A model generated the notes under the pieces. That model had not been told where the DNA came from. It ran no database searches and saw only the letters and a program-made list of their open reading frames with translations. DNA of 64,000 nucleotides from Mycobacterium saskatchewanense. Its GTDB lineage: Bacteria > Actinomycetota > Actinomycetes > Mycobacteriales > Mycobacteriaceae. Of the stretch, positions 10,985 to 31,211 are shown piece after piece. The stretch's first letter is position 1. Each line of letters starts with the position of its first letter. Both the position numbers and the translations under genes were made by a program. The stretch spans positions 868,001 through 932,000 of the forward strand of contig NZ_AP022573.1 in assembly GCF_010729105.1 (NCBI RefSeq), written 5' to 3'.

Positions 10985-10994
10985 CAACCCGCCA

Positions 10995-11047
10995 GACATA
11001 ACGCGGCGCGCGCCCCGTCGGCGTGTCGTCGACGCTGGTTATGTGTC
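10995..11047. repeat. 53-bp palindromic-ended element, copy A
   Basis: The element begins GACATAA and ends TTATGTGTC, with a core GTCGGCGTGTCGTCG. The same 53-bp length and ends recur at 13398-13450, 13527-13579, 13656-13708 (opposite orientation) and 28773-28825. This copy lies between convergent genes and reaches into the TetR gene, supplying its TAA stop codon at 11039-11041 on the minus strand. The terminal inverted repeats could form a hairpin. Confidence 0.75.
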
Positions 11048-11629
11048 GCGCGGACGGGGCTCGACGATGCGGGCTGCCGCCTCGACGGCGGCCGCGCGGC
11101 GCCGGGCGATGACGTCCGGGTCGGTGGTCGCGGCAGCGGGGTCCGGCCAGTGAGCCCAGGCCAACCCGATGGCGAACAGGAACACCAGCAGCTGTTGGGG
11201 CTCCCACGCGGGATCGACGTGGCCGTCCGCCTGCGCCTGCTCTACGGCCGCGATGGCCCGCTCGGGCGGGTGTTCGCCGTCGAACTCGGGCTTGTCCAGC
11301 GGAAAGCCTTCCAACTTCGCCCAGGTGATCATCCGCAAATGCTCGGGCCGGCTCTGGGCCAGGTCGAAGACCCCGCCGACGAACTCGGGGACGGCGTCCG
11401 GGTGTAGCTCGACGGCGCGGAAGAACTCGGCGCCGTCTGTGCTCACCACGTCGCGGAACAACGTCTCCTTGTCGCCGAAATGCGCATACAGCCTTTCCTT
11501 GCTGGCGTTCGCCGCCCGGGCGATGCGGTCGATGCGCGCGCCGGCCAGGCCGTACTGCGCGAACTCCGCCCGAGCGGCCGCCAGGATCTCGCCGCGCAGC
11601 TCGGTTCGGGTTCTCACGAGGAACATCAT
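11039..11629 (-). CDS. TetR/AcrR family transcriptional regulator
   Basis: 196 residues. The N-terminal HTH (about residues 11-57) is clear: ILAAARAEFAQYGLAGARIDRIARAANASKERLYAHFGDKETLF. The C-terminal ligand domain contains PEHLRMITWAKLEGFP and a Trp-rich helix (LAWAHWPDP). It is divergent from the methyltransferase-acyltransferase pair, and the 71-bp gap holds an ACGAAC-TG-GTTCGT palindrome, so it very probably represses that pair and itself. The end of the gene runs into the 53-bp repeat, which provides its stop codon. Confidence 0.92.
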   Translation of the reverse strand: MMFLVRTRTELRGEILAAARAEFAQYGLAGARIDRIARAANASKERLYAHFGDKETLFRDVVSTDGAEFFRAVELHPDAVPEFVGGVFDLAQSRPEHLRMITWAKLEGFPLDKPEFDGEHPPERAIAAVEQAQADGHVDPAWEPQQLLVFLFAIGLAWAHWPDPAAATTDPDVIARRRAAAVEAAARIVEPRPRDT

Positions 11630-11633
11630 AATC

Positions 11634-11651
11634 AGACGAACTGGTTCGTTT
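11634..11651. promoter_or_regulatory. Probable TetR operator
   Basis: ACGAAC (11636-11641) and GTTCGT (11644-11649) are a perfect 6-bp inverted repeat around TG. It sits 5 bp from the TetR start codon and about 50 bp before the divergent methyltransferase, the usual position for an autorepressing TetR operator. Confidence 0.65.
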
Positions 11652-11700
11652 GTTATCGTGGTGGCGACGACGAAGTTCGCGAGAAGAGGGAGGCGCCCCG

Positions 11701-12513
11701 ATGGCTGCCAACGATGTACTGGATCAGGCGATTGCCAACATGCCGAGGGGCGGCCCCGACGCGTCGTGGCTCGATCGGCGATTCGAGACGGATGCGCTGG
11801 AGTACCTCGACCGCGACGACGTGCCGGACGAGGTGAAGCAACGGGTCATCGGCATGCTCGATCGCCTGGGCGCCCTGACCAGCCAGCACGAAAAGCACGC
11901 GCGCACCGCGCTCGAGGTGGTCGCGGACGTCCCCAACCCGCGGATCCTGGAGCTCGGCGCCGGCCACGGCAAACTGTCGGCGCAGATCCTCGAGCAGCAT
12001 CCGACGGCGACCGTCACGGTCAGCGACGTGGACCCCACCTCGGTGGCCAACATCGCCGGCGGAGAGCTCGGCGACCACCCGCGGGCCCGCGCGCAGGTGA
12101 TCGATGCCACGGCGATCGACGCCGCGGACAACAGCTACGACCTGGTCGTGTTCGCGCTGGCCTTTCACCATCTACCGCCGGCCGTCGCCTGCCGCGCCAT
12201 CGCCGAGGCCACCCGGGTGGGCAAGCGATTCCTGGTCATCGACCTCAGACGGCAGAATCCGTTCGCCACCATGCTGTTTCCCGTGTTGGCGCTGCCGGTC
12301 AACCTGATCCTGCTGCCGTGGTCGTGGGTGTGGCCCGGCCTGCACGACGGGTTCATCAGCGCGTTGCGCGCCTACAGCCCGTCGGCGCTGGAAGCCCTTG
12401 CGCGCGCCGCCGATCCGGCAATGCGGGTCGAGGTGCTGCCCTCGAAGACGCGGTTCGGCCCGCCCTCGATCACCGTCGTGTTCTCCCGATCGGACGCGGC
12501 CGACCGTGGTTGA
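11701..12513 (+). CDS. Class I SAM-dependent methyltransferase
   Basis: 270 residues from ATG 11701; an upstream in-frame ATG at 11650 would overlap the operator. Motif I is ILELGAGHGKLS (residues 82-93), with TVTVSDVDPTS (acidic residue binding the ribose), VIDATAIDAADNSYDLVVFALAFHHLP and a hydrophobic segment near residues 198-218 (TMLFPVLALPVNLILLPWSWVW) suggesting membrane association. It is co-transcribed with the acyltransferase, whose possible GTG start overlaps its stop codon. A lipid substrate is a reasonable inference from that pairing. Confidence 0.88.
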   Translation: MAANDVLDQAIANMPRGGPDASWLDRRFETDALEYLDRDDVPDEVKQRVIGMLDRLGALTSQHEKHARTALEVVADVPNPRILELGAGHGKLSAQILEQHPTATVTVSDVDPTSVANIAGGELGDHPRARAQVIDATAIDAADNSYDLVVFALAFHHLPPAVACRAIAEATRVGKRFLVIDLRRQNPFATMLFPVLALPVNLILLPWSWVWPGLHDGFISALRAYSPSALEALARAADPAMRVEVLPSKTRFGPPSITVVFSRSDAADRG

Positions 12514-12517
12514 GAGC

Positions 12518-13360
12518 ATGGACCTGACCGCGATCATGCGGCCGAACGTCCGGGTTCGGACGCTGCGCCGGGCGCTCGACTCGGTGACCGGCTGGCTGCG
12601 ACCGGTCTCCGGCCTGTCCCGGCCCTATGTCGACGGCGTCGAAAACCTGCCGCGTGACGGCCGATTTCTGTTGGTGGGCAACCACACTCAGTTCGGCTCG
12701 GAGATCTTCCTGATCTCCGACGCGGTGCGTCGGGAAATCGGGACCCGGGTGCGCCCCCTGGCGGACCGCGGGTTCGGCCGGATGCGTGGACTTCCCGCCG
12801 ACCTGCTGGCGGCGTTCGGTGGCGTGGTGGGCGCACCGGAGACGGCCCGCGAACTCATGCGCCACGACCAGACCATCCTCGTGTTTCCCGGCGGCGGCCG
12901 AGAAATCCCCAAGTTCAAGGGCGAGGAGTACACCCTGCGCTGGCAGGGCCGCGCCGGGTTCGCGCGGCTCTCGGTGGAGAACGGCTACCCGATCGTGCCG
13001 GCGGGTCTCGTCGGCGGCGACGACGTCTACCGCAGCCTGACCACTCGGGACAGCGTCTACGGCCGGTTCAGCGAGGCACTGGGCCGCCGGCTGAACGGCC
13101 GCCCCGACATGGCGATGCCGCTGCTGCGGGGGATCGGCCCCACCTGGATTCCGCGGCCACAGCGCATGTACCTGCGGTTCGGCGCGCCCATCGACACGAC
13201 GACGCCGTTGGGGGTGAGCGGCGAGCGGTGGGTGGACATCGTCAAGGGGCGCACGCAACGGGCGCTGGAGCAGATCCTGGCTGACCTGCAACGGGTGCGC
13301 ACCACCGACCCGTTTCGGGAACTCAACCCGCTGGCGTGGAGCGGCGCCGTCGTCCCATAA
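12518..13360 (+). CDS. PlsC-like acyltransferase
   Basis: 280 residues from ATG 12518; GTG 12506 overlaps the upstream stop and is an alternative. Lysophospholipid-acyltransferase fold: LLVGNHTQFGSEIF provides the His block, though in a variant spacing (HTQFGSE rather than HX4D), then GGVVGAPE, ILVFPGGGREIPKFKGEEYTL (block III-like, with the FPGG motif) and GYPIVPAGLVG. It probably acylates a lipid or glycolipid at the membrane. Its pairing with a methyltransferase under TetR control suggests a small lipid-modification operon. Confidence 0.85.
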   Translation: MDLTAIMRPNVRVRTLRRALDSVTGWLRPVSGLSRPYVDGVENLPRDGRFLLVGNHTQFGSEIFLISDAVRREIGTRVRPLADRGFGRMRGLPADLLAAFGGVVGAPETARELMRHDQTILVFPGGGREIPKFKGEEYTLRWQGRAGFARLSVENGYPIVPAGLVGGDDVYRSLTTRDSVYGRFSEALGRRLNGRPDMAMPLLRGIGPTWIPRPQRMYLRFGAPIDTTTPLGVSGERWVDIVKGRTQRALEQILADLQRVRTTDPFRELNPLAWSGAVVP

Positions 13361-13375
13361 GCGCCTGGCGCGCCC

Positions 13376-13726
13376 ACGTGGCAACACCCCGCGCGTCGAC
13401 ACATAACCCGTTGCGACGACACGCCGACAGGGCTCGCAATGGTTTATGTCTGGCGCGCCGGGGGATTGCCTCCCAGGCCCGCCGGGAACCGGCCCAGCAC
13501 CCGCACGTGGCAACACCCCGCGCGTCGACACATAACCCGTTGCGACGACACGCCGACAGGGCTCGCAATAGTTTATGTCTGGCGCGCCGGGGGATTGCCT
13601 CGCAGGCCCGCCGGGAACCGGCCCAGCGCCCGCACGTGGCAACACCCCGCGCGTCGACACATAACCCCTTGCGACGACACGCCGACAGGGCTCGCAATAG
13701 TTTATGTCTGGCGCGCCGGGGGATTG
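13376..13726. repeat. Tandem repeat, 129-bp period, 2.7 copies, carrying three 53-bp elements
   Basis: Units start at 13376, 13505 and 13634, each beginning ACGTGGCAACACCCC, with only a few substitutions between copies. Each contains one 53-bp element (13398-13450, 13527-13579, 13656-13708) that is the reverse complement of the element at 10995-11047. The third copy breaks off near 13726. Open frames cross the array on both strands only because the period is divisible by three; I see no real gene. It fills the gap between the acyltransferase and the convergent frameshifted membrane gene. Confidence 0.9.
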
Positions 13727-13746
13727 CCCCGCAACGCGGACGGGGC

Positions 13747-14002
13747 TCAAGACCCCTTGCTGTAGCGGGTGAGGAATCCGACGGCGGCGACGCCGGCCGC
13801 GGCGCCGACGACTCCCCACAGCACGAGCTGGAAGACCATCGCCCCCATGAACCAACCGAACGCCATCCCGATGTAGAAGGACCCAGAACAGGCGGAAGGC
13901 GCTCCACAGGGCGACCAGGCCGGCGCTGATCCCGATGTACAGGCTGCGCTGACGGTCGACGCGGTTGATCTGCTCTTCGATGCCGGTGGGCACGAGCTTC
14001 AT
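13747..14002 (-). pseudogene. Frameshifted small two-segment membrane protein
   Basis: From ATG 14002 the frame reads MKLVPTGIEEQINRVDRQR, then a membrane segment (LYIGISAGLVALWSAFRLFW). At about 13876-13885 the frame is lost and becomes Arg-rich nonsense. In the next frame the protein continues as SFYIGMAFGWFMGAMVF, a second hydrophobic helix (LVLWGVVGAAAGVAAVGF) and LTRYSKGS with a stop at 13747-13749. Dropping one base (or adding two) around GGGTCCTTC restores about 85 residues. The cause is either a real frameshift or a sequencing error. Function is unknown. Confidence 0.7.
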
Positions 14003-14195
14003 TTGCTGATTTCCTTTCGTGTGGCGCCGCCCCGTTGGCGTCGTCGTTGCGGTAAGTACAGCCCGCGCCGGTGGCTACCAATCCCAACGTTGGCGCCGCG
14101 ACCCGCGGTGCTTGCGGCGCCGGGACGCAGGTGGGTCAATGCAAGGGGACTCCGCGACGTAGGCGCCGGCCGCACCCGAACCGAGGAAGGGAACG

Positions 14196-14798
14196 ATGTC
14201 GATGATCAATCCGATGAGGCTCGCCGGGCAGGTCGCCGAGTCGGTGCTGGCGGTGGGCGGCATCCGCGTCGGCCTCGAGGAGCCGAAGTTCAAGCGCCAC
14301 CCGCTCACGGACACCGTGGAGATTCGCCGCTACGGGGCGCGCATCGCCGCCGAGACGACGGTCGTCGACGACGAGAACGGTGCGCGGAATGTCGGGTTCC
14401 GCCGGCTGGCGGGGTACATTTTCGGCGGAAACCACGGCGCCCAGTCGATTTCGATGACGGCGCCCGTCGTTCAGTCCGCGCGCGCCGAGAACGGCTGGAC
14501 CATCAGGTTTTTCATGCCGGCGAAGTGGACAATGCAAACCCTCCCGATGCCCAACGACGACCAGGTCCGGCTGGTCCCCGTGCCGGCCCAGACGGTGGCC
14601 GTCCTCGGATTCAGCGGTGATTGGAGCCCCAAAGGGGTGGCGCGCCGCACCAATGAGCTGTTGAAGACATTGCGGGACAAGGGCATCGAGCCGGTCGGAG
14701 GGCCCGAAACCTGGTTCTACGATCCGCCCTGGACGCTGCCGATGCGCCGCCGCAACGAGATCGCGGTCCCCGTCGACCCGGCGTCCACGCCGACCTAG
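14196..14798 (+). CDS. SOUL heme-binding family protein
   Basis: 200 residues, preceded by a GAGGAAGGGA ribosome site. SOUL/HBP fold: VEIRRYGARIAAETTV, FRRLAGYIFGGNHGAQSISMTAPV, WTIRFFMPAKW, LPMPNDDQVRLVPVPAQTVAVLGFSGDWS, a late ETWFYDPPWTLPMRRRNEIAVPV, which are the usual conserved blocks. Family members bind heme or tetrapyrroles weakly; in bacteria the role is not settled. No signal peptide is visible. A two-base gap separates it from the DUF2905 gene, indicating one transcript. Confidence 0.9.
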   Translation: MSMINPMRLAGQVAESVLAVGGIRVGLEEPKFKRHPLTDTVEIRRYGARIAAETTVVDDENGARNVGFRRLAGYIFGGNHGAQSISMTAPVVQSARAENGWTIRFFMPAKWTMQTLPMPNDDQVRLVPVPAQTVAVLGFSGDWSPKGVARRTNELLKTLRDKGIEPVGGPETWFYDPPWTLPMRRRNEIAVPVDPASTPT

Positions 14799-14800
14799 CC

Positions 14801-15025
14801 ATGGATAGGAACATCGGCCCACTCGTTGTCGCGGCGGGGATACTCGTCGTGCTGTTCGGCATACTGCTGTGGGCGGGTGGCCTGTCGTGGTTCGGCCGCC
14901 TCCCGGGTGACATCCGGGTCGAGCGCGGCAACGTGCGCATCTACGTTCCCGTGGTCTCCATGCTCCTGGTGTCGGTGGCCGCGACCCTCGTGGGATCGGT
15001 CGTGCACTATCTTTTCCGACGGTGA
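14801..15025 (+). CDS. DUF2905 family small membrane protein
   Basis: 74 residues with two hydrophobic helices (about 7-25 and 49-70) separated by LSWFGRLPGDIRVERGNVRIYVP, the hallmark of DUF2905, where the central LPGDI segment is conserved. Function of the family is unknown. It starts two bases after the SOUL gene, so co-transcription is likely. Confidence 0.88.
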   Translation: MDRNIGPLVVAAGILVVLFGILLWAGGLSWFGRLPGDIRVERGNVRIYVPVVSMLLVSVAATLVGSVVHYLFRR

Positions 15026-15062
15026 CCCGGCAGGCGCGGTCGGCCCGGCACGGATCGGCTTG

Positions 15063-15340
15063 ATGGACGGGAAGGTCAACCAATAGGGGGACGCCGGCCA
15101 GCTGACCGGCGTCGCCGAAACGGCGCTGCTGACCCTGCGCGGAAGGGCCCACCAGGCCGCCCGACCCGATCCGATCATCGATGACCCGATGGCCATCAAG
15201 CTCGTCGAATCCATAGCGTTCGACTTCGAGAAATTCGGACGCAAAGGTCCCTGCGACCGCTGGCCGTCGACCGGTGCGCCATCAGCTACCTCACCGCGCA
15301 CTCCAGGGCGACGGGTGGTCGGCTGCTCGAATTCGGTTGA
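15063..15340 (+). pseudogene. Remnant of a TcmP/LCM-type methyltransferase
   Basis: From about 15099 the plus-strand frame reads GQLTGVAETALLTLRGRAHQ, PDPIIDDPMAIKLVESI and FDFEKFG, which is the N-terminal part of class I methyltransferases of the TcmP/leucine-carboxyl methyltransferase type. An in-frame TAG at 15084-15086 separates it from an upstream ATG (15063). After about 15243 the frame shifts and continues as LRPLAVDRCAISYLTAHS for a short stretch. The SAM-binding core is absent. The gene is a decayed fragment; the intact TcmP-like gene at 17148 is a different family member. Confidence 0.7.
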
Positions 15341-15343
15341 GCC

Positions 15344-16354
15344 TCAGTCGCTTTTGACCACAAGCTTGCCGACGTTCTTGCCGTCGAACAGCATGTTGAT
15401 CGCGTCGGGCAGCTGCTCGAATCCCTCGACGACGGTCTCGAGCGGGGTGAGCTTACCCGCGGCGATGAGCCCGCCGATCTCGGTTGCCGCCTGCGACGCC
15501 CGCCCCAAGTGATCGAGGACGATGAAGCCCTGTACCGTTGCCCGCTGAATCAGCACGTTCCCGAACGCCCGCGGACCTGGTGGGGGATCGGCCGCGTTGT
15601 AGCCGGAGATCAGACCGCAGAGGGCAACGCGCGCACCGATATTGAGCCGCGCGAAGACCGCGTCCATGATGTCGCCGCCCACGTTCTCGAAGTCGACGTC
15701 GACGCCATCGCGTGTCGCCGCCGAGAGCTGGGCGGTCCAGTCGTCGGCGCGGTAGTCGACCGCCGCGTCGAAGCCCAGTTGCTCGGTGAGCAGTGCGCAC
15801 TTCTCAGGACCGCCGGCGATCCCGACGACCCGCGCACCGGCCACCTTGGCCAGCTGCCCGGCGACCGACCCGACCGCACCCGCCGCGGCGGACACCACGA
15901 CCGTCTGCCCGGGCTGCGGCTTGCCGATGTCGTGGATGCCAACCCACGCGGTCAGCCCCGTAGATCCCAACGCGCCCAGGTAGGTGCTCGGCGACATGCC
16001 GTCGGCGACGTCGACCGGCGTCAAGAACGACGCGTCGGTGATGACCGCGTACTCCTGCCAGCCGAGCAAGCCCTGCACCTTCTGGCCGACGGGGTAGCGG
16101 GAATTCTTCGAGGCAACGACCTCGCCGAGCGCGGCGGCCCGCATGACCTCGCCGATCGCGACCGGCGGCAGGTAGGTAGGCGTGTCGTTGATCCACATCC
16201 GATTCGTCGGGTCGAGCGAGATCCACTCGACCCGCACCAGCGCCTCGCCCTCGCCGAGGTCGGGGACCGTGTCCTCGCTCAATTCGAAGGTGTCCGGGCC
16301 GATCCGCCCGGTGGGTCGTTCGCGGAGCAGGAAGCGGCGGTTGCGTACGGCCAT
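15344..16354 (-). CDS. NADP-dependent MDR-family oxidoreductase
   Basis: 336 residues from ATG 16354; a longer in-frame start at 16429 is not supported. Zinc-independent medium-chain reductase of the prostaglandin/alkenal reductase type: FELSEDTVPDLGEGEALVRVEWISLDPTNRMWIN, GLTAWVGIHDIGKPQPGQTVVVSAAAGAVGSVAGQLAK (nucleotide-binding loop), GIAGGPEKC, DVDFENVGGDIMD, IQRATVQGFIVLD, VEGFEQLPDAINMLFDGKNVGKLVV. It would reduce an activated C=C bond with NADPH. It follows the methyltransferase relic tail to tail. The substrate is unknown. Confidence 0.9.
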   Translation of the reverse strand: MAVRNRRFLLRERPTGRIGPDTFELSEDTVPDLGEGEALVRVEWISLDPTNRMWINDTPTYLPPVAIGEVMRAAALGEVVASKNSRYPVGQKVQGLLGWQEYAVITDASFLTPVDVADGMSPSTYLGALGSTGLTAWVGIHDIGKPQPGQTVVVSAAAGAVGSVAGQLAKVAGARVVGIAGGPEKCALLTEQLGFDAAVDYRADDWTAQLSAATRDGVDVDFENVGGDIMDAVFARLNIGARVALCGLISGYNAADPPPGPRAFGNVLIQRATVQGFIVLDHLGRASQAATEIGGLIAAGKLTPLETVVEGFEQLPDAINMLFDGKNVGKLVVKSD

Positions 16355-16458
16355 CAGCGCACCGTACCAATCGGCGCGAGAAGGCAACCGCGGCGGCGTC
16401 GGCGCTCTAGTCTGCACGAAGGCTCGCAAGGGTTTTCTTCGGACGGGGAGGTCAGCTC

Positions 16459-17124
16459 ATGAATGTGGTGTCACGCATTGCCCTGGTATGGATCGCCGTC
16501 GCGGCGCTGGTGGCAACGCTGACGGCCGGATCGGCCGCCGCCGATCCGCCGCCCACCCAGGTGATCACGGCGGTGGCCGTCGGACCCGGCGGCCAGCCGA
16601 TCAACGGCTATCAAGAGGCGCCGCCGCAGGGCAACGTCGCCACCGTCAGCGACTGCACCACGTCGTCCCCCTCGGCGGTCGCCGACAACATCTACTCCTG
16701 CTCCCCGAGCGCGGCCGACGCCGCCACGTGCTGGCCCTCGACGCCCGGGTCGCTGCTCTGCGTCGACAACCCCTGGGACATGCGACTCCATCGGGTGAAC
16801 TACACGGGCCCGCTGCCACCCGTGCAGCACCCCTCCGAGCCGACCCCGTTCGCGCTGACGCTCGACGACGGCACGCGCTGCCTGGCACGCAACGGCGGCG
16901 CCTGGGGTGGACGGACCGACGGGTACGTCGGCTTCTACGGGTGCGGCGCCGACGTCACCAGCGTCGCCGTCCTGTGCCTCCCCGACCAGCCACCCGGGAC
17001 CTGCATCGACAGGTCGGGTCCGGTGTGGTCGGTCAAGGTCGGCCCGCTGGGCGCGCCCGGCAACGACCGCTTTCCACCGCCGCAGACGCGGACGATAACC
17101 ACCGCCTGGTTCGCCGGCACCTGA
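16459..17124 (+). CDS. Secreted Cys-rich hypothetical protein
   Basis: 221 residues with a clear Sec signal peptide (MNVVSRIALVWIAVAALVAT, small residues then GSAAADPPP, cleavage near residue 30). The mature part contains about eight Cys (DCTTSS, YSCSPS, ATCWPS, LLCVDN, RCLARN, YGCGAD, LCLPDQ, TCIDRS), which would form disulfides outside the cell. I do not recognise the family. It lies just before the TcmP-type methyltransferase with a 23-bp gap, so they may share a transcript. Confidence 0.75.
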   Translation: MNVVSRIALVWIAVAALVATLTAGSAAADPPPTQVITAVAVGPGGQPINGYQEAPPQGNVATVSDCTTSSPSAVADNIYSCSPSAADAATCWPSTPGSLLCVDNPWDMRLHRVNYTGPLPPVQHPSEPTPFALTLDDGTRCLARNGGAWGGRTDGYVGFYGCGADVTSVAVLCLPDQPPGTCIDRSGPVWSVKVGPLGAPGNDRFPPPQTRTITTAWFAGT

Positions 17125-17147
17125 ACGGCGGTGCTATAACGCACCGT

Positions 17148-17993
17148 ATGTCAGGCCCAGGGCACTCCATCACCCATGTCTCCGACACGGCACGGTGGAC
17201 GGCACTGCACCGGGCGACCGAATCGGCCCGCCCCGACGCCCTGTTTCGCGACCCGCTCGCCGAACGCCTCGCCGGCGAACACGGCCGGGCGATCGTCGCC
17301 GCGGTTCCACGGAGCACCCGCAACGGCTGGTGGCTCGTCGCCCGGACGAAGCTCATCGATGACGCCATCGCCGCCGCGATCGCCGACGGCTGCGACAGGG
17401 TGCTGAACCTGGCCGCCGGGCTGGACACCCGCCCCTACCGTCTGGACCTTCCGCCGGACTTCACCTGGGTGGAGGCGGATCTGCCCAAGCTGCTCGCCGA
17501 GAAGACGCAGCTCTTAGCCGACCAGGTGCCACGCTGCCGGTTGACCCGGGCGGCCGTCGACCTCGCCGACCCGCAGGCCCGCGACGCCTTCCTCGACGAG
17601 GCGCTGACCGGAGCGACCAGAGCGCTGGTGCTGACCGAGGGCCTGCTGATGTACCTGGAAGAACGCGACGTGGCCGCGCTCTCGGGCGCGATCCGAAGGC
17701 CGGAGGTCGCCTGGTGGATGCTGGACTTCGCCGGGCCCGGCCTCAAGAAGATGATGAACAAGAAGATGGCCGGCATGCTGCAGAACGCGCCGTTCAAGTT
17801 TGCGCCCGAGAACGGGCTGGCCTACTTCGAAAGCCTCGGCTGGCGGACAGTCGAAGTGGAGGCGCTGTACCTGGCCGCCCGGCGATTTCATCGCCTGCCG
17901 CTGGCGATGCGCCCGTTGGCCTGGCTGCCCCAACCGGATCCGCGCCACCCGGGCACTCGGCCGTGGAGCGCCACCGCCCTGCTGACGCACTGA
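17148..17993 (+). CDS. TcmP-like SAM-dependent methyltransferase
   Basis: 281 residues from ATG 17148. Layout of the TcmP/LCM family: SDTARWTALHRATESARPDALFRDPLAERLAG at the N-terminus, VLNLAAGLDTRPYRLDLP (motif I, AAGLDTR), FTWVEADLPKLLAEKTQLL, RALVLTEGLLMYLEERDVAAL, WWMLDFAGPGLKKMM. Such enzymes methylate carboxyl or hydroxyl groups of small molecules; mycobacteria carry many paralogues of unknown substrate. It converges on the GH16 gene with a 4-bp gap. Confidence 0.88.
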   Translation: MSGPGHSITHVSDTARWTALHRATESARPDALFRDPLAERLAGEHGRAIVAAVPRSTRNGWWLVARTKLIDDAIAAAIADGCDRVLNLAAGLDTRPYRLDLPPDFTWVEADLPKLLAEKTQLLADQVPRCRLTRAAVDLADPQARDAFLDEALTGATRALVLTEGLLMYLEERDVAALSGAIRRPEVAWWMLDFAGPGLKKMMNKKMAGMLQNAPFKFAPENGLAYFESLGWRTVEVEALYLAARRFHRLPLAMRPLAWLPQPDPRHPGTRPWSATALLTH

Positions 17994-17997
17994 GCGA

Positions 17998-18831
17998 TTA
18001 CCAGACGCGGATGTAATCGACGAGCATCTGCGCCGGGTAGGTTCCCGAGGTCGGGTCGCCACCACCCGATCCCGCGACGGCGAGGTTGAAGACGGGGTAC
18101 ACGGTGTACCCGGGTCCGTTGAACGGCCAGTCCGGCAGCGAACTGGCCGGGACGTCGAAATAGGGCTGGGCCCCGTCGGCGTAGTCCTTCCAGAACCGGA
18201 TGCCGGCCTCGTCCCACTGGCATCGCCAGGTGTGCCAGGCGCTGTCGAGCGCGATGTTGTGGGTCTTCCACTCGCCGCCGTTCGCCTTGGCGTGGACGGT
18301 GGTCGCTGCCGGCCAGTTGCCGTTGCCGTACCACTCCATCGTGTCGATTTCGCCCTCGCCCTCGTTGCCCATCCAGAAGGCGGGCCAGCAGCCAGCGGTC
18401 AGGCAGTCCAGCTTGATCCGGGCCTCCCAGGTGTGCCCGACGCCCCCGCGCCACAGGCTTTGCACCTTGCCGCTGTAGTAGGTGGGCCCATCTTTGGCGG
18501 CGCGCAGGACCAGGTTCGACTTACCGTCGAGGAAGACGTTCTGGCGGTCGTCCCGGTATTGGCCGATGTGCTCGGGCTGCTCCCAGTAGGTCGGGTCCTT
18601 GATCTGTTCGCGCGCCCGCGCGATCGCCCACTTCGAGCCGTCGGGGGCCGAGCCGGCGGGACCGTCGAACTCGTCCTGGAAGACGTACGTCCCGGTCTGG
18701 CCGCTGGGAGCGGCGGGCGGTCGCGCGGGACCCGGCATGGCCTGGGCTTTCGTGACGGGCAGCGCGGCCGCCAGCACACCGATCCCTGTCGTCAAGATCA
18801 TGCGGCGACGATCCATCTCCGGCATAAGCAA
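17998..18831 (-). CDS. Secreted GH16 glycoside hydrolase (beta-glucanase-like)
   Basis: 277 residues. A Tat-like signal (MDRRRMILTTGIGVLAAALP) precedes a GH16 jelly-roll domain: FQDEFDGPAGSAPDGSKW, the catalytic EGEIDTMEW (ExDxxE: nucleophile, assisting Asp, acid/base Glu), WHTWRCQWDEAGIRFWKDY and a C-terminal YPAQMLVDYIRVW. The whole sequence strongly resembles M. tuberculosis Rv0315, a secreted GH16 protein, from memory. It probably cleaves beta-1,3-type glucans or a related surface glycan outside the membrane. Confidence 0.92.
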   Translation of the reverse strand: MLMPEMDRRRMILTTGIGVLAAALPVTKAQAMPGPARPPAAPSGQTGTYVFQDEFDGPAGSAPDGSKWAIARAREQIKDPTYWEQPEHIGQYRDDRQNVFLDGKSNLVLRAAKDGPTYYSGKVQSLWRGGVGHTWEARIKLDCLTAGCWPAFWMGNEGEGEIDTMEWYGNGNWPAATTVHAKANGGEWKTHNIALDSAWHTWRCQWDEAGIRFWKDYADGAQPYFDVPASSLPDWPFNGPGYTVYPVFNLAVAGSGGGDPTSGTYPAQMLVDYIRVW

Positions 18832-19081
18832 GGGACGATAGCAGCCGCCGCCCCGCGCAGCCGAACCCGCAATTCGTGTCAGTGGTCGCCGTTATGGTTT
18901 GGACCGCGGCCCGACCGGAACCGACGGTGCCGCGGAAGTCGCCGAGGGATTGCGGGAAAATTCATGGCCAATTCTCATCTTGCGAGGTGGTTTGGTCTCA
19001 GGATGCCCCGGGCATTCTTGATTACAGGCCGATAACTACCGCTGGTAGCCTTGGCAGTTGCTCTGAGGGGAGTTGACAATC

Positions 19082-19288
19082 GTGGCGAATGAATCCGAAG
19101 CGACGGTTATTTTCCTCGAATCCCATCCGCGTTGGCTCGCGGCCCAGCGCGCGCGGCGAGAACGCGTCGAGGCCATCGGCCGGCACCCGTCGGTCGTCGC
19201 CCGTCGGCGGGCGCACGCCCGGGATCGTGATATCGCCGTCGGAATGCGCGCCATGAGGTCGTACTCCAGCGGCGACACCCCCGCGTAA
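19082..19288 (+). CDS. Small basic hypothetical protein
   Basis: 68 residues from GTG 19082 with a GAGGGGAG ribosome site upstream (TTG 19073 also in frame). It reads VANESEATVIFLESHPRW followed by an Arg-rich region with RRERVEAIGRHPSVVARRRAHARDR. I recognise no family. Codon use is ordinary for this genome, and it precedes a poorly organised stretch before the P-type ATPase. It may be real, but only the ribosome site and the codon use support it. Confidence 0.4.
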   Translation: MANESEATVIFLESHPRWLAAQRARRERVEAIGRHPSVVARRRAHARDRDIAVGMRAMRSYSSGDTPA

Positions 19289-21334: not shown

Positions 21335-22131
21335 GCACGGACCACCCTGTGGAACCGGCGTCGGAAGCCTTCCGTCACAACCGCGAATCCTATGAACGCC
21401 TCTATCGCGGAGCGTCGGCGTTTCCGGGCGCCCCCGCCCCCGCCGGAATCCCGTGGGATGTGGGGCAGGCGCAGCCGCGACTCATGGAACTCGTGGCGCT
21501 CGGTGCGATCCGGGGAGAAGTACTTGACGCGGGCTGCGGCCTGGGTGACAACGCGATCTACCTTGCCCGCCAAGGTTATTCCGTGACCGGCCTCGACAGT
21601 TCGCCGACGGGGATCGAACGGGCCCGCGTACGCGCCGCCGCCACCGGCGTGCGGGTACGCTTCGAGGTCGCCGACATCACCGAATTGACCGGTTACGACG
21701 GGAAGTTCGACACCGTAGTCGACAGCGCGATGTACCACTGCCTGGACCGAGACGGCAGGCGGGCTTACGCAGCCGCGCTGCACCGCTCGACAAAGCCAGG
21801 CGCCCGCTGGTTTCTCTACTGCTTCTCCGGTGACGACGTCAACGGTGTCATCGCGCCGATGGAGGCGGTATCCGAACTCGATATCCGCGACACCCTGGAA
21901 AATGCCGGCTGGCGCATCGACTTCCTCGGCCCCACCACGTTTCTCGGAAACGCCGCGGGTTTCTCCGGCAGCTTCGGGAAACTCCCGGACGCAGTCCTCC
22001 GACAAATGTCACCTGCGCAAGCCCGACAAATGCGCGACATGGCTGAGCGGATGGCCACCATCCTGCCGCTCATCGACGGCGGACGCGTTCACCTGCCGTG
22101 CACTGTCGTCCACTCGACCAGGTCGAGCTGA
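21331..22131 (+). CDS. Class I SAM-dependent methyltransferase
   Basis: 266 residues, starting at ATG 21331 inside the end of the ATPase gene (4-bp overlap), so translation is coupled. GEVLDAGCGLGDNAIYLARQ is motif I (about residues 62-81), then SVTGLDSSPTGIERAR, FEVADITELTGYDGKFDTVVDSAMYHCL. This resembles thiopurine/tellurite-type small-molecule methyltransferases. The C-terminal part is less conserved. Coupling to a dead ATPase may be accidental after rearrangement. The substrate is unknown. Confidence 0.87.
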   Translation: MSTDHPVEPASEAFRHNRESYERLYRGASAFPGAPAPAGIPWDVGQAQPRLMELVALGAIRGEVLDAGCGLGDNAIYLARQGYSVTGLDSSPTGIERARVRAAATGVRVRFEVADITELTGYDGKFDTVVDSAMYHCLDRDGRRAYAAALHRSTKPGARWFLYCFSGDDVNGVIAPMEAVSELDIRDTLENAGWRIDFLGPTTFLGNAAGFSGSFGKLPDAVLRQMSPAQARQMRDMAERMATILPLIDGGRVHLPCTVVHSTRSS

Positions 22132-22264
22132 GCCGATACTGGCTGCACGCTTACCGACGAAAAGGACTTGTGGGACACCCGCCGCGGCAATCGAAGCAAC
22201 ACAGCAGGATGGCAAGACGATGCCGGGGAGGCCACGTCGTCGGCGCTACCGGGCAGGCCTATAG

Positions 22265-24047
<1,783 letters not shown>

Positions 24048-24755
24048 CGGCGCGCCGCTTGGTGAAATACATCGCCACGCTCTTGCCCACGAGCGGATTG
24101 AGCAGCGACTCGGCCAGCTTGGTCACCTTCGGTCGCCGCATCAGGTCCCACACCAGCAGCTTGTGGTACGCGGCCACCGCCGGGTGTTCCGGATTCGACA
24201 CTCCCACAGCACATTTGAGCCACCAAAACGGCGAGTGCAGGGCGTGCGCGTGATGGGTGTGCGTCAACTCCATGCCGCCGCTGCGGATCTTGTCGCGCAG
24301 TTCGCTGGCGCGGTAGATGCGCACGTGGCCACCCTCGTTGGCGTGGTACTCGTCGGACAGCAGCCAGCACACCCGCTCGGGCAGCCATCGCGGCACGCTG
24401 ACCGCCAGAGTGCCACCAACTTTGAGCACCCTGAGCAGTTCGGCGATGGCAGCGTCGTCCTGGGGGATGTGCTCGAGGATTTCGGACGCGATGACGCAGT
24501 CGAACGTCTCGTCGGCGTAGGGCAGCCGCAGCGCGTCGCCGAGCACGGCCGTCGCCGACGCCCCGGGGGGCGCCTCGCCGGCCTCGGCCATGGCCTGCAG
24601 GATCGTCTCCACCGAGCGCAGCTCTGAGGCGTTCTGGTCGAAGGCAACGACGTCTGCCCCGCGCCGATACGCTTCGAAGGCATGCCGGCCCGCCCCGCAA
24701 CCGACGTCGATGACCTTGACGGACGGACCGACGCCGAGCCGATCGAAATCGACCG

Positions 24756-26012
24756 TCAGCATAGGCTTTGGCCTTCGGCGCCGTCCCCGCGCGCGATAGC
24801 CCGCTCGTAGACACGGACGGTTTGCGCGGCCACGGCCTCCCAGCTGAAGACGTTGACCGCGCGCGCCCGCCCCGCCCCGCCCAGTCTCCGCCGCTTCTCC
24901 GGCGAGTCGAGGAGATTACCGAGCGCTTGGGTGAGCGCGTCGACGTCGGCGGGCGGCACCAGCTCGGCGCATGCGCCGTCGGATCCGACGACTTCCGGCA
25001 GCGCGCCCACCCGGCTCGCGACGATCGGAGTGCCGCTCGCCATGGCTTCCACGGCCGGCAGCGAAAAGCCTTCGTAGAGCGAAGGAATGCAGGCGACCTC
25101 GGCCGAGGCGAACAGCGCGGCCAGGTCGGCGTCGGAGACCCCGCTGGTGATGTGGACGATATCGGAAATCCCCAGCTCGGCGATGAGCTTGTGGGTGGGG
25201 CCGTTCGGCTCCACCTTCGCCACCAACCGCAGCTCGAGGTCGCGGCTGGTGCGCAGCCGGGCGACCGCGTGCAGCAGGGTGCGGACACCCTTCAGCGGGG
25301 TGTCGGCGCTGGCGATCGCGATGACCCTCCCGCGCCGCCGCGGCTCGGTTCCGGGCTTGAACAGTTCGGTGTTCACGCCCAGCGGCACGGTGTGCAGCTG
25401 GGCGGGGGAGACGCCGAAATCGGTAACGATGTCCGCGGCGGACGACGACGACACCGTCAACAGGTCCGGAATCCGCCGCGCCACCTGCTTTTGCATCTTG
25501 GAGAACCCATACCACCTGTGCACGAATGGTTTTCGCCACCACGGCGCGGCGGCGACGTCGAGCACCCGGTCGCGGGTGATCGGGTGGTGCACGGTGGCCA
25601 CCACCGGCAACCCCGCGCCGGCGATGGTCAGCAGCCCCGAGCCCAGGCTCTGATTGTCGTGGACGACATCGAAGTCGCCCGCGCGCCGGGCCAGCAACCG
25701 GGCAACCCGCAGCGTGAACGTCCGCGGTTCGGGGAAGCCCGCGGTCCACACCGTGAGCAGTTCCAGCAGATCGATCGAGTCGCGGATCTCGCTTGGCCGC
25801 GGCACACGGAACGGGTCGGGCTCGCGATACAGGTCCAGGCTGGGCACCTTGGTCAGGCGCACACGCGGATCCAGCAGGTCCGGGTACGGCTGCCCGGAGA
25901 ACACCTCGACGTCGTGACCGAGCTCCACCAGCCCGTGGCTGAGATGTCGCACGTAGACGCCCTGTCCGCCGCAATGGGTCTTACTACGGTAGGACAGCAA
26001 GGCAATTCGCAT
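24756..26012 (-). CDS. GT4-family glycosyltransferase
   Basis: 418 residues from ATG 26012 (MRIALLSYRSKTHCGGQGVY). GT-B fold of family 4: GGQGVYVRHLSHGLVELGHDVEVFSG at the N-terminus, DVVHDNQSLG, VATVHHPITRD, TVPLGVNTELFKPG, IASADTPLKGVRTLLHAVARL, and the C-terminal donor site in IPSLYEGFSLPAVEAMASGTPIVAS (EGFSLP..E, the ExxxxxxxE motif). It transfers a sugar from a nucleotide-sugar donor at the cytosolic face. First gene of a three-gene operon, behind a promoter with an overlapping palindrome at 26099-26114. Confidence 0.92.
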   Translation of the reverse strand: MRIALLSYRSKTHCGGQGVYVRHLSHGLVELGHDVEVFSGQPYPDLLDPRVRLTKVPSLDLYREPDPFRVPRPSEIRDSIDLLELLTVWTAGFPEPRTFTLRVARLLARRAGDFDVVHDNQSLGSGLLTIAGAGLPVVATVHHPITRDRVLDVAAAPWWRKPFVHRWYGFSKMQKQVARRIPDLLTVSSSSAADIVTDFGVSPAQLHTVPLGVNTELFKPGTEPRRRGRVIAIASADTPLKGVRTLLHAVARLRTSRDLELRLVAKVEPNGPTHKLIAELGISDIVHITSGVSDADLAALFASAEVACIPSLYEGFSLPAVEAMASGTPIVASRVGALPEVVGSDGACAELVPPADVDALTQALGNLLDSPEKRRRLGGAGRARAVNVFSWEAVAAQTVRVYERAIARGDGAEGQSLC

Positions 26013-26098
26013 ACTCAACTCTTCTGTGCTGGTGAACGGTGGCGGAATGGCGCCGAATCCAACGCCGTCAACGGACTCCCGAACTCCGTGACAGCAAA

Positions 26099-26144
26099 CT
26101 GGACATGTGTCCAGACTATAGTTCGCCTGCCTAAGCGAGCGCAA
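26099..26144 (-). promoter_or_regulatory. Promoter and operator palindrome of the glycosyltransferase operon
   Basis: On the minus strand, TTGCGC (26144-26139), an 18-nt spacer and TATAGT (26120-26115) make a good sigma-A-type promoter. Immediately downstream is the perfect palindrome CTGGACATGTGTCCAG (26099-26114), which covers the expected start site. This layout implies repression by a dimeric regulator, TetR-like in symmetry. No regulator gene is adjacent. Confidence 0.65.
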
Positions 26145-26284
26145 CGACCTCGAACATCGCCGCGCCGCGCGCGGGTCGTACCGGAAATGTCCCCCACGCG
26201 AAGATCATGCCACTCGGGCGTTCACAGCGACGTGCGGACCACTTGGCGGAACCGTTGAACCGTTCGGGCCGCGGCCCCGTCGCC

Positions 26285-26296
26285 TAGGTATACCTA
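26285..26296. promoter_or_regulatory. 12-bp perfect palindrome upstream of the GMC oxidoreductase
   Basis: TAGGTATACCTA reads the same on both strands and ends 27 bp before the GTG start. The half-site TAGG resembles metal-regulator (DtxR/IdeR-like) half-sites, but the site is shorter than a normal iron box. The rest of the 310-bp gap 26013-26322 holds only this and the glycosyltransferase promoter. Confidence 0.4.
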
Positions 26297-26322
26297 AGAA
26301 TACCCAGCAGAAGGAGCCTTCG

Positions 26323-27876
26323 GTGGATGCTGTGCTGCAGCCGGGCTATGACGTCATCGTGTGCGGGGCCGGGTCGTCGGGGTCGGTGATCGCCCGCAGG
26401 CTCGCCGAGAATGCCGACGTGCGGGTCTTGCTTCTGGAAGCCGGCGGCAGCGATGACGTCCCCGGCGTAACCGAGGCGGGGCAGTGGCCGACGAATCTCG
26501 GGAGCGAGCGAGACTGGGCGTTCGTGTCCGAACCAGACCCCCGGCTGCACGGGCGTTCGATCCCGTTCTCGATGGGAAAGGCCCTCGGCGGTGGCTCCAG
26601 CATCAATCTCATGGTGTGGGCACGCGGGCACCGCAACGACTGGGACCACTTCGCGGACGAATCCGGCGAACCGGCGTGGGACTACGAGCACGTCCTCGGC
26701 CTCTACCGGCAGATCGAGGACTGGCACGGCGTCGGCGAGCCCCACCATCGCGGCAGGGGCGGCCTGGTGTTCGTCGAGCCGGCGCGCGACACGCATCCGA
26801 TCGCGGCAGCCACGCTGGACGCGGCCCGGGCCCACGGCATCCCCACCTTCCAAAGCCCCAACGGTCGCATGATGGAGAGCGCCCGCGGCGCGGCCTTCAT
26901 CGACCTGAGGGTCCGCGAGGGGAAGCGCCAGTCGGTCTTCCGCACCTATACCGCGCCCTACCTGGACCGGCCGAACCTGACCGTGGTGCCGCACGCGCTG
27001 GTCACGCGGGTGACCTTCGACGGCAACCGCGCCACCGGCGTCGAGGTCCGCCACGGCGGAGAGACCCACCACGTCGCCGCCGAGGCCGAGGTCGTGCTGT
27101 CCCTTGGCGCGATCCACACCCCGAAGGTCCTCATGCAATCCGGCGTCGGAGACTCCGACGAGTTACGCGGCGCCGGGGTGACAGCCCGCCACCACCTGCC
27201 CGGAGTGGGGCGCAACTTCCAGGACCACTTCGGGTTCGACGTCGTCTGGGAATTCCCCGAGGGTGTACAGCCCGCCGCTCTGGCGGGGGCGGCGTTGTTC
27301 TGGGACTCGGGAGCGGCGGGCGTCGACGGACCGGACCTGTTCGCCTGCCTGGGGCCGTTTCCCAAGTCGACCCCCGAGAACGTCGCCAAATTTGGTCTGC
27401 CCCTGAATAGTTGGATCCTGTTCGGCTCACCGACCCACCCCGCCAGCCGCGGCCGGTTGCGGTTGTCGGGACCGGGCCCGGACGATCCCATCCGGATCGA
27501 GGCGAACGCCTTGTCGGAACCCGAGGACCTCAAGACGGCCATCGCCTGCATCGAGACCCTCCGGGAGATCGGCAACTCCCCCGAACTGCGACCCTTCGTC
27601 GCGCGCGAGGTCATGCCGGGCGACCTGTCGGGCGCCGAACTGGACGCCTACCTTCGTGACGCCGTCAGCACCTACTGGCACGAGTCGGGGACCGCGAAGA
27701 TGGGCCGCGACGAGATGTCCGTGGTGGACGGGCGCCTGAAGGTCTATGGCCTCGAGAATCTGCGCGTCGCCGACGCATCGATCATGCCGCGCATCACCAG
27801 CGGCAACACGATGGCGCCGTGCGTGGTGATCGGGGAGCGCGCCGCCGAGTTCATCAAGGCCGAGCATCGTTTCTGA
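26323..27876 (+). CDS. GMC-family FAD oxidoreductase (choline/alcohol dehydrogenase-like)
   Basis: 517 residues from GTG 26323, with an AAGGAG ribosome site. VIVCGAGSSGSVIARRLAEN (residues about 11-30) is the FAD-binding Rossmann loop, LLLEAGGSD binds the ribose, GKALGGGSSINLMVW is GMC signature 1, GAIHTPKVLMQSGVG is signature 2. The C-terminal catalytic His is in YWHESGTAKMG, and ITSGNTMAPCVVIGERAAEFI closes the FAD domain with the partner Asn. It oxidises an alcohol or polyol; the electron acceptor is not evident. No signal peptide. Its regulation may involve the palindrome at 26285. Confidence 0.92.
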   Translation: MDAVLQPGYDVIVCGAGSSGSVIARRLAENADVRVLLLEAGGSDDVPGVTEAGQWPTNLGSERDWAFVSEPDPRLHGRSIPFSMGKALGGGSSINLMVWARGHRNDWDHFADESGEPAWDYEHVLGLYRQIEDWHGVGEPHHRGRGGLVFVEPARDTHPIAAATLDAARAHGIPTFQSPNGRMMESARGAAFIDLRVREGKRQSVFRTYTAPYLDRPNLTVVPHALVTRVTFDGNRATGVEVRHGGETHHVAAEAEVVLSLGAIHTPKVLMQSGVGDSDELRGAGVTARHHLPGVGRNFQDHFGFDVVWEFPEGVQPAALAGAALFWDSGAAGVDGPDLFACLGPFPKSTPENVAKFGLPLNSWILFGSPTHPASRGRLRLSGPGPDDPIRIEANALSEPEDLKTAIACIETLREIGNSPELRPFVAREVMPGDLSGAELDAYLRDAVSTYWHESGTAKMGRDEMSVVDGRLKVYGLENLRVADASIMPRITSGNTMAPCVVIGERAAEFIKAEHRF

Positions 27877-27905
27877 GCCGGGCGCCGAGTTGTTACCATC
27901 GCGCG

Positions 27906-28694
27906 GTGCCCGACTCGGCTGCACCACCCGGACCGCCCCCGGTCACCCGGCGCGACCTCCTCAAATACGCGCTGGCGCCCGTCCTGCTGGGCGCGGCCGC
28001 CGGCCTGGCCGCGCCGGTGGCATCGGCCGCCGCCACCCGGCTGATCGATTTCGCCGAGCGGCGGATCTCACCGGACGAGATCAAGGCCGCCGGCTACGAC
28101 GGGGTGGTCAATTACGTATCGGCGTCGCGGCCGGGCGCGAATTTCGAGGCCAAGCCCATCACCCGCGAGTACGCCGACGCGTTGCGCGCGGCGGGCCTGC
28201 AGATCGTCAGCAACTTCCAGTACGGCAAGCCCGGCTGGCCCGACCCGTCGGACTACACCCGCGGCTACGACGGCGGAGTGGCCGACGCCCACACCGCCAT
28301 GGGGCTGCACTCAGCCGCCGGTGGGCCTCCCTCTGCCCCAATCTTTTTCAGCGTCGACGACGACATCGACGAGAACACCTGGAACGGCCCGGCCGTCGAC
28401 TGGTTCCGGGGGATCAACTCCGCCCTGGGCGTCGGCCGCACCGGCATCTACGGGCATGCCAAGGCCTGCGGCTGGGCGATCAGGGATGGGGTGATCGGCC
28501 ACTCGAGCACGCCGGGGCACCGGTGGGCGTGGCAGACCAGCTCGTGGTCGCATGGCGACCGCGAGCCCGCGGCGGTGCTCTACCAAGCGGTGGTCAACAG
28601 CCCGTCGAATCCCAGTCCGCTGCTGGGCGGGATCAACGTCGACATCGACGACGTCCTCGCCGCCGACTATGGCCAGTGGGATTTCGCCCGCTGA
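27906..28694 (+). CDS. Tat-secreted DUF1906 (glycoside hydrolase-like) protein, Rv2525c-like
   Basis: 262 residues from GTG 27906. A twin-arginine signal is clear (TRRDLLKYALAPVLLGAAAG, then LAAPVASAAA). The mature domain has the DUF1906 pattern: LIDFAERRISPDEIKAAGYDGVVNYVS, LQIVSNFQYGK, APIFFSVDDDIDENTWN (the acidic site), GVGRTGIYGHAKACGWA, YGQWDF at the end. It resembles M. tuberculosis Rv2525c, a Tat substrate implicated in cell-wall processes. A glycan-hydrolysing role outside the membrane is probable but unproven. Confidence 0.9.
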   Translation: MPDSAAPPGPPPVTRRDLLKYALAPVLLGAAAGLAAPVASAAATRLIDFAERRISPDEIKAAGYDGVVNYVSASRPGANFEAKPITREYADALRAAGLQIVSNFQYGKPGWPDPSDYTRGYDGGVADAHTAMGLHSAAGGPPSAPIFFSVDDDIDENTWNGPAVDWFRGINSALGVGRTGIYGHAKACGWAIRDGVIGHSSTPGHRWAWQTSSWSHGDREPAAVLYQAVVNSPSNPSPLLGGINVDIDDVLAADYGQWDFAR

Positions 28695-28772
28695 TCCATT
28701 CTCGGGTGTCCGGGTGCTCGCCATTCGACGGCTCGTCCGCGTCCGCGTCCCCGTCCGCGTCCCCGACCGCGA

Positions 28773-28825
28773 GACATAATCCAGCGCGACCCCAACCGGC
28801 GAGTCGTGTGCGTCGTTTATATGTC
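28773..28825. repeat. 53-bp palindromic-ended element, copy C
   Basis: Begins GACATAA and ends TTATATGTC, with a core containing CGGCGAGTCGT. It is more diverged than the other copies, but its length is identical (53 bp) and it again sits between convergent genes (DUF1906 and katG). Orientation is the same as copy A. Confidence 0.65.
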
Positions 28826-28888
28826 GCGGGCGCCCGCGACGGGCGCCCGTGACGGGCAACCGCGCGACGCCAACGCCCACCAACGCGA

Positions 28889-28923
28889 CGACGCCCCGGG
28901 TGCGGGTGGCTCCCGGGGCGTCG
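28889..28923 (-). terminator. Hairpin downstream of katG
   Basis: CGACGCCCCGGG (28889-28900) and CCCGGGGCGTCG (28912-28923) form a perfect 12-bp stem with an 11-nt loop, 14 bp after the katG stop codon on the minus strand. There is no T-tract, but position and stability make it a likely end of the furA-katG transcript. Confidence 0.75.
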
Positions 28924-28937
28924 CAGTGTTGAGCTGA

Positions 28938-31211
<2,274 letters not shown>

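What the first reader, a model, noticed from the sequence alone, without database searches (positions are those of the whole stretch)
10995..28825. A 53-bp palindromic-ended element of constant length at three loci, always between convergent genes
Copies at 10995-11047, 28773-28825 and (reverse-oriented) 13398-13450, 13527-13579, 13656-13708 all measure exactly 53 bp. All begin GACATAA and end TTATGTGTC or TTATATGTC, with a central CGGCG(T/A)GTCGT, while the rest varies. Each locus lies where two genes converge (epimerase/TetR; acyltransferase/membrane protein; DUF1906/katG). One copy supplies the TetR stop codon. Fixed length with conserved ends and core suggests a mobile or maintained genomic element (REP/MITE-like) or a bidirectional transcription end, not chance. 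I know of no named mycobacterial repeat with these ends.
Basis: seen in the sequence. Interest (0 to 1): 0.85.

Follow-up and report, generated by a model that had tools for sequence, protein, structure and literature searches.

The report
Repeat hairpins tied to a nuclease
A 53-letter DNA hairpin scattered through the genomes of slow-growing mycobacteria also frames, on both sides, one lineage of a DNA-cutting enzyme gene, which suggests that bacteria have a second way, with an unrelated enzyme, of spreading and keeping such repeats.

Summary
The five window copies are real; the 6.01-Mb genome holds 17 exact-ended copies, all 53 bp, and 35 full-length copies by profile. In the collections searched the family was seen only in Mycobacterium. 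"Always convergent" is wrong: 13 of 30 classified copies are, though that is enriched.

The unexpected result is a partner gene. Copies frame a ~281-aa gene; the model of a homologue has the AbiEi-antitoxin fold at residues 1-173 and a Vsr/I-Bth0305I-type nuclease fold at 178-279. Of 32 homologues at least 67% identical to the own protein, 30 carry the hairpin upstream (always reversed), 29 downstream, 28 both; of 52 more distant ones, 1 does. Distant paralogues often carry other palindromes: 39 of 57 genes upstream, against 15 of 220 random genes.

Best reading: REP-like repeats served by an AbiEi/Vsr-type nuclease, working like REP-RAYT with an unrelated enzyme. Association, inheritance and turnover are shown; binding, cutting and copying are inferred. 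Operator and terminator readings remain possible.

The parts
10995..11047 (+). element copy 1 (53 bp; symmetric unit 10990-11050) between epimerase (10079-10984 +) and TetR (11039-11629 -)
   Evidence: no copy at the same site in G017, G157 and G058
13398..13450 (-). element copy 2, first unit of the tandem triple (symmetric unit 13395-13455)
   Evidence: a single copy, same orientation, in G157
13527..13579 (-). element copy 3, second unit of the tandem triple
13656..13708 (-). element copy 4, third unit of the tandem triple
13363..13749 (.). 129-bp tandem repeat, 3 units, each holding one element
28773..28825 (+). element copy 5 (symmetric unit 28768-28828) between the Rv2525c-like gene (27906-28694 +) and katG (28938-31178 -)
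   Evidence: of 13 relatives with both genes close together, 4 have a copy there (G062, G080, G036, G058) and 9 do not
28881..28931 (.). separate GC-rich hairpin next to katG, present with or without the element; probable ordinary terminator

Best explanation
The 53-bp element is a REP-like palindromic repeat whose partner is a ~281-aa nuclease gene elsewhere in the genome (own genome 5,952,919-5,953,761). SHOWN: the same hairpin sits about 32-53 bp upstream of that gene (65 in one homologue), reversed, and mostly at or close to its stop codon; the rule holds for nearly the whole of this nuclease lineage, and other lineages often carry other hairpins. SHOWN BY MODEL ONLY: the protein joins an AbiEi-antitoxin fold to a Vsr/I-Bth0305I-type nuclease domain with an invariant acidic motif. 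INFERRED: the AbiEi-like part reads the conserved ends and centre (CGCGAGACATAAAC, CGGCGTGTCG, GTTTATGTGTCGCG); the kept purine-G mismatch tells the strands apart when the palindrome is extruded; the nuclease nicks or cuts at the hairpin, and repair or replication copies the short hairpin to new places, mostly 3' ends of genes where damage is least. Repeated recognition keeps ends, centre and length constant. Copies are then inherited vertically and lost now and then. It works like REP-RAYT but with an unrelated enzyme.
Against: No binding, cutting or movement was observed. Four genomes keep copies with no nuclease at E 1e-90: G036 (14 profile hits), G080 (12), G226 and the 3.4-Mb MAG G225. 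G001's nuclease flanks are TTAA-type while 14 of its 17 fetched dispersed copies are of the A-T (ATAA/TTAT) type. About half of foreign copies (46 of 96) sit at sites that also hold an own copy, so many look inherited, not freshly moved. Inner arms are not kept paired: 22 differences paired in both copies against 526 paired in one copy only; a stem counted on 16 own copies shows no excess over shuffles. Outside the genus the upstream hairpin beat the shuffles in 2 of 20 loci (downstream 11 of 20). No insertion was dated and no target duplication established.
Confidence: 0.58

Rival explanations
1. The palindromes are binding sites only. The AbiEi-like part binds the upstream copy as its own operator, and the dispersed copies are regulatory, protective or decoy sites that the nuclease recognises (for example as self marks), with no role in their own spread.
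For: The AbiEi fold is known to bind inverted repeats at its own promoter (recalled). The narrow upstream distance, 28-44 nt in 31 of 33, fits an operator. Ends and centre are conserved as sequence.
Against: Most copies lie at 3' ends, not promoters: 3 of 30 divergent. The second hairpin at the stop codon is not needed for an operator. A fixed-length family of 35 copies still needs a way of spreading.
Confidence: 0.22
2. The element is a transcription terminator, like the TRIT hairpins of M. tuberculosis, kept at gene ends by selection and spread without the nuclease.
For: Enriched between convergent genes (13 of 30 copies against 13.6% of sampled intergenic bases; p=6e-5; copies are not all independent). 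A TRIT-like hairpin in the own genome shares the centre CGACACGCCG (TRIT letters recalled). A TRIT model is cited in PMC3526491 (passages).
Against: Inner arms are not kept paired; I see no T-run in the flanks listed; the katG site has a separate hairpin in element-free relatives too. It does not explain the upstream reversed copy or the lineage-specific pairing with nucleases.
Confidence: 0.13
3. Ordinary REP/MITE moved by a Y1 (RAYT, IS200/IS605) or other known transposase.
For: REP-like anatomy and placement.
Against: No Y1_Tnp in the own genome, while 5 of 14 control genomes ring. The repeat's consistent partner is another enzyme. Other transposase families were not searched for.
Confidence: 0.04

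Closest known systems
REP / REPIN with RAYT (TnpA-REP)
   Same: Short dispersed palindromes, some with a stem irregularity, a preference for tandem or convergent gene ends, tandem clusters including flanks, repeats framing a single-copy enzyme gene, and long persistence (PMC3116915 passages, PMC8266576 and PMC8049555 abstracts, PMC3733652 abstract and passages)
   Different: The enzyme is an AbiEi-fold plus Vsr-like nuclease, not an HUH Y1 transposase; the unit is ~61 bp with a conserved centre and no GTAG foot
CGTC REPs
   Same: Palindromes mostly between tandem or convergent genes; described as apparently lacking a dedicated transposase (PMC3733652 abstract)
   Different: Reported predominantly from Alphaproteobacteria; 20-40 bp; the paper's text has no 'mycobacteri'
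TRIT (terminator model for M. tuberculosis, Gardner 2011)
   Same: Mycobacterial hairpin at gene ends; a TRIT-like hairpin in the own genome shares the centre (TRIT letters are recalled)
   Different: Other outer arms; the original paper was not held, so no direct comparison
AbiEi antitoxins / Rv2827c
   Different: Here fused to a nuclease domain; adjacent AbiEii partners were not searched for
Vsr and the homing endonuclease I-Bth0305I
   Different: Those are mismatch-repair or homing enzymes without palindromic repeats (recalled)
MIRU of M. tuberculosis
   Same: Some MIRU units are also 53 bp (recalled)
   Different: Not compared here by sequence

Membership tests
REP-RAYT | dispersed short palindromes, mainly extragenic, many copies | tested here: met
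   35 copies; of 30 classified none lies wholly inside a called gene, a few overlap gene ends
REP-RAYT | repeats frame the gene of a dedicated enzyme, one lineage per family | tested here: met
   28 of 32 versus 1 of 52 on both sides
REP-RAYT | enzyme is a Y1 HUH transposase | tested here: not met
   no PF01797 in the own genome; partner is AbiEi/Vsr-like
REP-RAYT | GTAG (or CGTC) tag at the hairpin foot | tested here: not met
   consensus foot is CGCGA...TCGCG, read by eye
REP-RAYT | enzyme cuts the folded single-stranded repeat | not testable with these tools
   needs biochemistry
Vsr/DUF559/MTES_1575 nucleases | fold and acidic catalytic residues | tested here: met
AbiE toxin-antitoxin | AbiEi fold | tested here: met
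AbiE toxin-antitoxin | adjacent AbiEii toxin gene | not tested
   neighbours of the nuclease genes were not scanned for AbiEii
intrinsic terminator / TRIT | stem kept by compensatory change | tested here: inconclusive
   outer pair 12-56 yes; inner arms 22 versus 526, no; 16 own copies alone no excess over shuffles
intrinsic terminator / TRIT | RNA 3' ends map to the copies | not testable with these tools
   no RNA data
curated Rfam family | match at gathering score | tested here: not met
   0 matches in the window

The most novel reading that the evidence does not exclude
Mycobacteria carry a general class of genomic repeat systems: each lineage of an AbiEi-fold/Vsr-like nuclease owns, is framed by and disperses its own ~60-bp palindrome. 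It is a REP system invented independently of HUH transposases, in which a nuclease built from an antitoxin-like regulator and a homing-type domain keeps a population of hairpins at gene ends. Many mycobacterial 'terminator' hairpins would be its products.
Probability: 0.45. Interest if true: 0.93.

Novelty: new variant of a known kind. Interest (0 to 1): 0.84.

Why it matters
The REP repeats of the papers seen here have one class of partner enzyme (RAYT), and CGTC REPs are said there to lack one (PMC3733652 abstract). A second, unrelated partner class would show that 'short palindrome plus single-copy enzyme' evolved more than once. It would suggest a function for a nuclease family found in 98 of 98 sampled genus genomes, named in the listings only hypothetical, endonuclease domain-containing, DUF559 or the like. 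It could also explain where families of mycobacterial gene-end hairpins come from. It is directly testable with one protein and one oligonucleotide.

Tried and rejected
RAYT/IS200: no Y1_Tnp in the own genome. Phage or plasmid origin: no exact pattern match in viral contigs; blastn of the 387-bp window array found nothing in phages or plasmids. Known RNA family: none in the window. Structured RNA with a fully kept stem: the inner arms fail. 'Always convergent': fails. Integron attC: considered from recalled R'/R'' motifs, which do not fit; not otherwise tested. Generality outside Mycobacterium: weak (of the 20 out-of-genus loci I saw matching hairpins on both sides only in L297). PDB by sequence: no match; Foldseek alone gave no match below E 0.001. 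A de novo scan of 464 kb for strong hairpins gave 26, many apparently chance palindromes, and no clear match to the nuclease-flank library, so the share of genomic hairpins owed to these nucleases is unknown. Two scripts failed in part and were redone or left: missing file after its first 17 loci; a pattern of mine that caught only one copy; its result is not used.

Length constancy versus nuclease, a count made after seeing the lengths: of the 95 copies, 84 of 88 are 53 bp in genomes counted as having the nuclease, against 3 of 7 in G036, G080, G225 and G226 (p=0.0007). Suggestive only: the M. szulgai and 852014-52450 copies stayed in the first group with nuclease status unknown, M. europaeum has the nuclease yet copies of 45 and 56 bp, and G001 counts as having it with a TTAA-type nuclease.

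In one search the matches were taken down to E 0.002; weaker partial matches at L240, L270 and L241 (E 0.003-0.007) were left out, and L343's upstream match was missed because its aligned start is late.

Literature: ten searches showed no paper linking these nucleases to repeats, of which aimed at that link; the library lacks most subscription papers, and Gardner 2011 was not held. Seen of papers: PMC3526491, PMC5379054, PMC3733652, PMC2267715 and PMC3116915 by passages; PMC3733652, PMC8266576 and PMC8049555 by abstract; the rest by listing only.
Full report
THE ELEMENT. The genome (6,008,916 bp, one contig) has 17 exact-ended copies, all 53 bp, with 0 for the control pattern. A sequence-only profile from 16 copies finds 35 full-length copies at 29 places. 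The symmetric unit is 61 bp, CGCGA-GACATAAAC...CGGCGTGTCG...GTTTATGTGTC-GCG, about an axis where columns i+j=68. In 123 non-redundant ungapped copies, columns 9 and 59 are G and G in 115. In a wider set of 192, scored without columns 11-13 and 55-57, they are G-G 169 and A-G 18, and only 4 form a pair. Outer pair 12-56 changes on both sides together: A-T 144, T-A 22, G-C 6, in all 172 of 192 paired; 1000 shuffles reached at most 136. Much of this set was fetched by an exact pattern that fixes the A-T type, so the T-A and G-C cases come from the rest. The inner arms covary weakly; between copies at the same site, differences that are paired in one copy only outnumber those paired in both, 526 to 22. 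A stem counted on the 16 own copies shows no excess over shuffles.

DISTRIBUTION. A scan of one genome per species (84,980 species) with exact ends plus centre gave 94 stretches; all 94 (L074-L167) have Mycobacterium or Mycolicibacterium titles. Of 95 distinct copies 87 are 53 bp, the rest 45-56. The same pattern gave none in viral contigs; blastn of the window array gave none in phages or plasmids. With exact ends, 10 of 148 relatives match, all of the genus, one of them (G049) with a different inside. With the profile, 27 of 98 genus genomes have at least one match at 1e-6 (G000 37, G058 24, G001 23, G062 19, G157 19, G076 16, G036 14, G080 12, G038 11); such counts include some copies matched on both strands.

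SITES. With a simple gene finder of my own, 13 of 30 copies are convergent, 14 tandem, 3 divergent, none wholly inside a called gene. In 464 kb of own sequence, intergenic bases are 13.6% convergent, 51% tandem, 35% divergent; the excess of convergent has p=6e-5 and the lack of divergent p=0.003, copies in clusters not being independent. The three tandem-array copies were counted apart, as tandem, because the small minus-strand membrane reading next to them is split over two frames and was not called. At the katG site, of 29 relatives fetched, 10 lacked the left gene and 6 had it 800 bp or more away; of the 13 with both genes close, 4 have the element (G062, G080, G036, G058) and 9 do not (G038, G046, G048, G017, G061, G059, G007, G010, G045); all 13 show, by eye, a separate GC-rich hairpin next to katG. 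At the epimerase/TetR site G017, G157 and G058 have no copy; at site 2 G157 has one copy in the same orientation (for most of the 30 loci one or both flanks were missing). Of 96 foreign copies 46 lie at a site where the own genome also has a copy, both flanks matching and same orientation. At 149 same-site pairs the inner part is 68.5% identical (random pairs 50.8%) and the adjoining 70 bp 64.4% (52.0%), against 96.5% for ends and 96.6% for the centre; the last two are inflated because foreign copies were found through them. So many copies are old and inherited, while others have come or gone.

THE LINK. All 98 genus genomes examined have 1-12 homologues at 1e-40. Of 84 distinct genes in fetched loci, 32 are at least 67% identical to the own one: 30 have the element upstream (32-65 bp from the aligned start), 29 near the stop codon, 28 both. 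Of 52 others one gene (L252) has both (matches down to E 0.002, three weaker partial ones left out). The upstream element is reversed relative to the gene in 31 of 31; the downstream one is forward in 17 and reversed in 13. By flank comparison these genes lie in five genomic contexts, and the label needs 4 changes on the tree (at least 3 forced), shuffled 25.8. More distant paralogues carry other palindromes. For the 57 genes of L228-L284 (30 best loci plus the remaining homologues in five genomes), 39 upstream and 34 downstream palindromes beat all 30 shuffles; in-gene controls 2 of 57. Random own genes gave 15 and 17 of 220, and 9 of 91 upstream where the upstream gap is at least 90 bp. Fisher against the 220: 1.5e-21 and 3e-16; orthologues are not independent, controls are from the own genome only, and the start codon is an estimate. 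Hairpins of one gene resemble each other (best 16-mer 14.1, n=29) more than those of different genes (10.1). A second own paralogue at 243.3 kb is framed by a 56-bp CGAGCGTAAC family with copies at 233188, 455107, 2355314, 4452399 and 4519722 (the pattern gave 20 places against 1 for the control, several of other families). Of the other three own paralogues, two (3056.8 and 2731.5 kb) have an upstream palindrome above the shuffles and one (4232.8 kb) only a downstream one. At one locus, species differ in both nuclease lineage and hairpin family while the flanks stay 76-82% identical (L348's hairpin is a weak profile match, E 3e-5, L252's a strong one). In 20 loci outside the genus the upstream palindrome beat the shuffles in 2 and the downstream one in 11.

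CO-OCCURRENCE AND ITS LIMITS. All 12 genus genomes with a >=70% nuclease (one a partial gene, G059) have profile matches, against 15 of 86 others; shared ancestry inflates this. Of 25 genomes with copies, 21 have a nuclease at 1e-90. G036, G080, G225 (3.4-Mb MAG) and G226 have copies and none, so copies can outlive or outrun the gene. In G084 and G051 the end type of the one fetched dispersed copy looked at agrees with the gene's flanks; in G076 three of four fetched copies are T-type at the 5' end like the gene's flanks but mixed at the 3' end; in G001 14 of 17 do not agree.

MECHANISM. What is shown is a lineage-specific pairing of hairpin and gene, conservation of ends and centre, symmetry of the outer arm with one kept mismatch, and long inheritance with turnover. 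From the folds I infer recognition by the AbiEi-like part and cutting by the Vsr-like part. That the cut drives copying is the least certain step. The main rivals are an operator or marker role for the same binding, and a terminator role.

NOVELTY. The anatomy is that of REP-RAYT as described in PMC3116915 (passages), PMC3733652 (abstract, passages) and PMC8266576 (abstract): repeats framing a single-copy gene, preference for tandem or convergent gene ends, tandem clusters with flanks. The enzyme is unrelated and there is no GTAG/CGTC foot, so it is not filed as a REP-RAYT member. My ten literature searches found no report of this pairing (calls named under Tried and rejected).

Noticed in passing
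window 936-1001: Another ~60-bp hairpin (arms GCGCCGAGCGTGGG / CCCACGCTCGGCGC), just after the gene ending at 924; belongs to the wider CGAGCGT group.
   Followed up: partly
L317:7952-8011 (own genome about 2,807,952): TRIT-like hairpin GCGAGCAGACGC...GCGTCTGCTCGC with the centre CGACACGCCG shared with the 53-bp element.
   Followed up: no
L049 and L058 (G049): A 46-bp family with the same ends GACATAA...TTATGTGTC but a different inside and CGCGAGCA/TGCTCGCG feet.
   Followed up: no
window 13700-14195, minus strand: A small membrane-protein-like reading split over two frames beside the tandem array; described only.
   Followed up: partly
own genome 334374, 429970, 1258538, 1941422, 3278617: A CGAGCGTGCG family, 58 bp in 4 of 5 copies and 54 bp in the fifth, two of the five with an exact CGGCGTGTCG centre; no nuclease assigned to it.
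   Followed up: no
L297 (G184): Outside the genus, this nuclease gene has the same ACCACCAAAATGGCCATTTTGGTGGT palindrome on both sides.
   Followed up: no
L126:2860-4795: Two elements 1.9 kb apart in Mycobacterium sp. 4858 frame a PE/PPE-like reading instead of the nuclease (the label is by eye).
   Followed up: no
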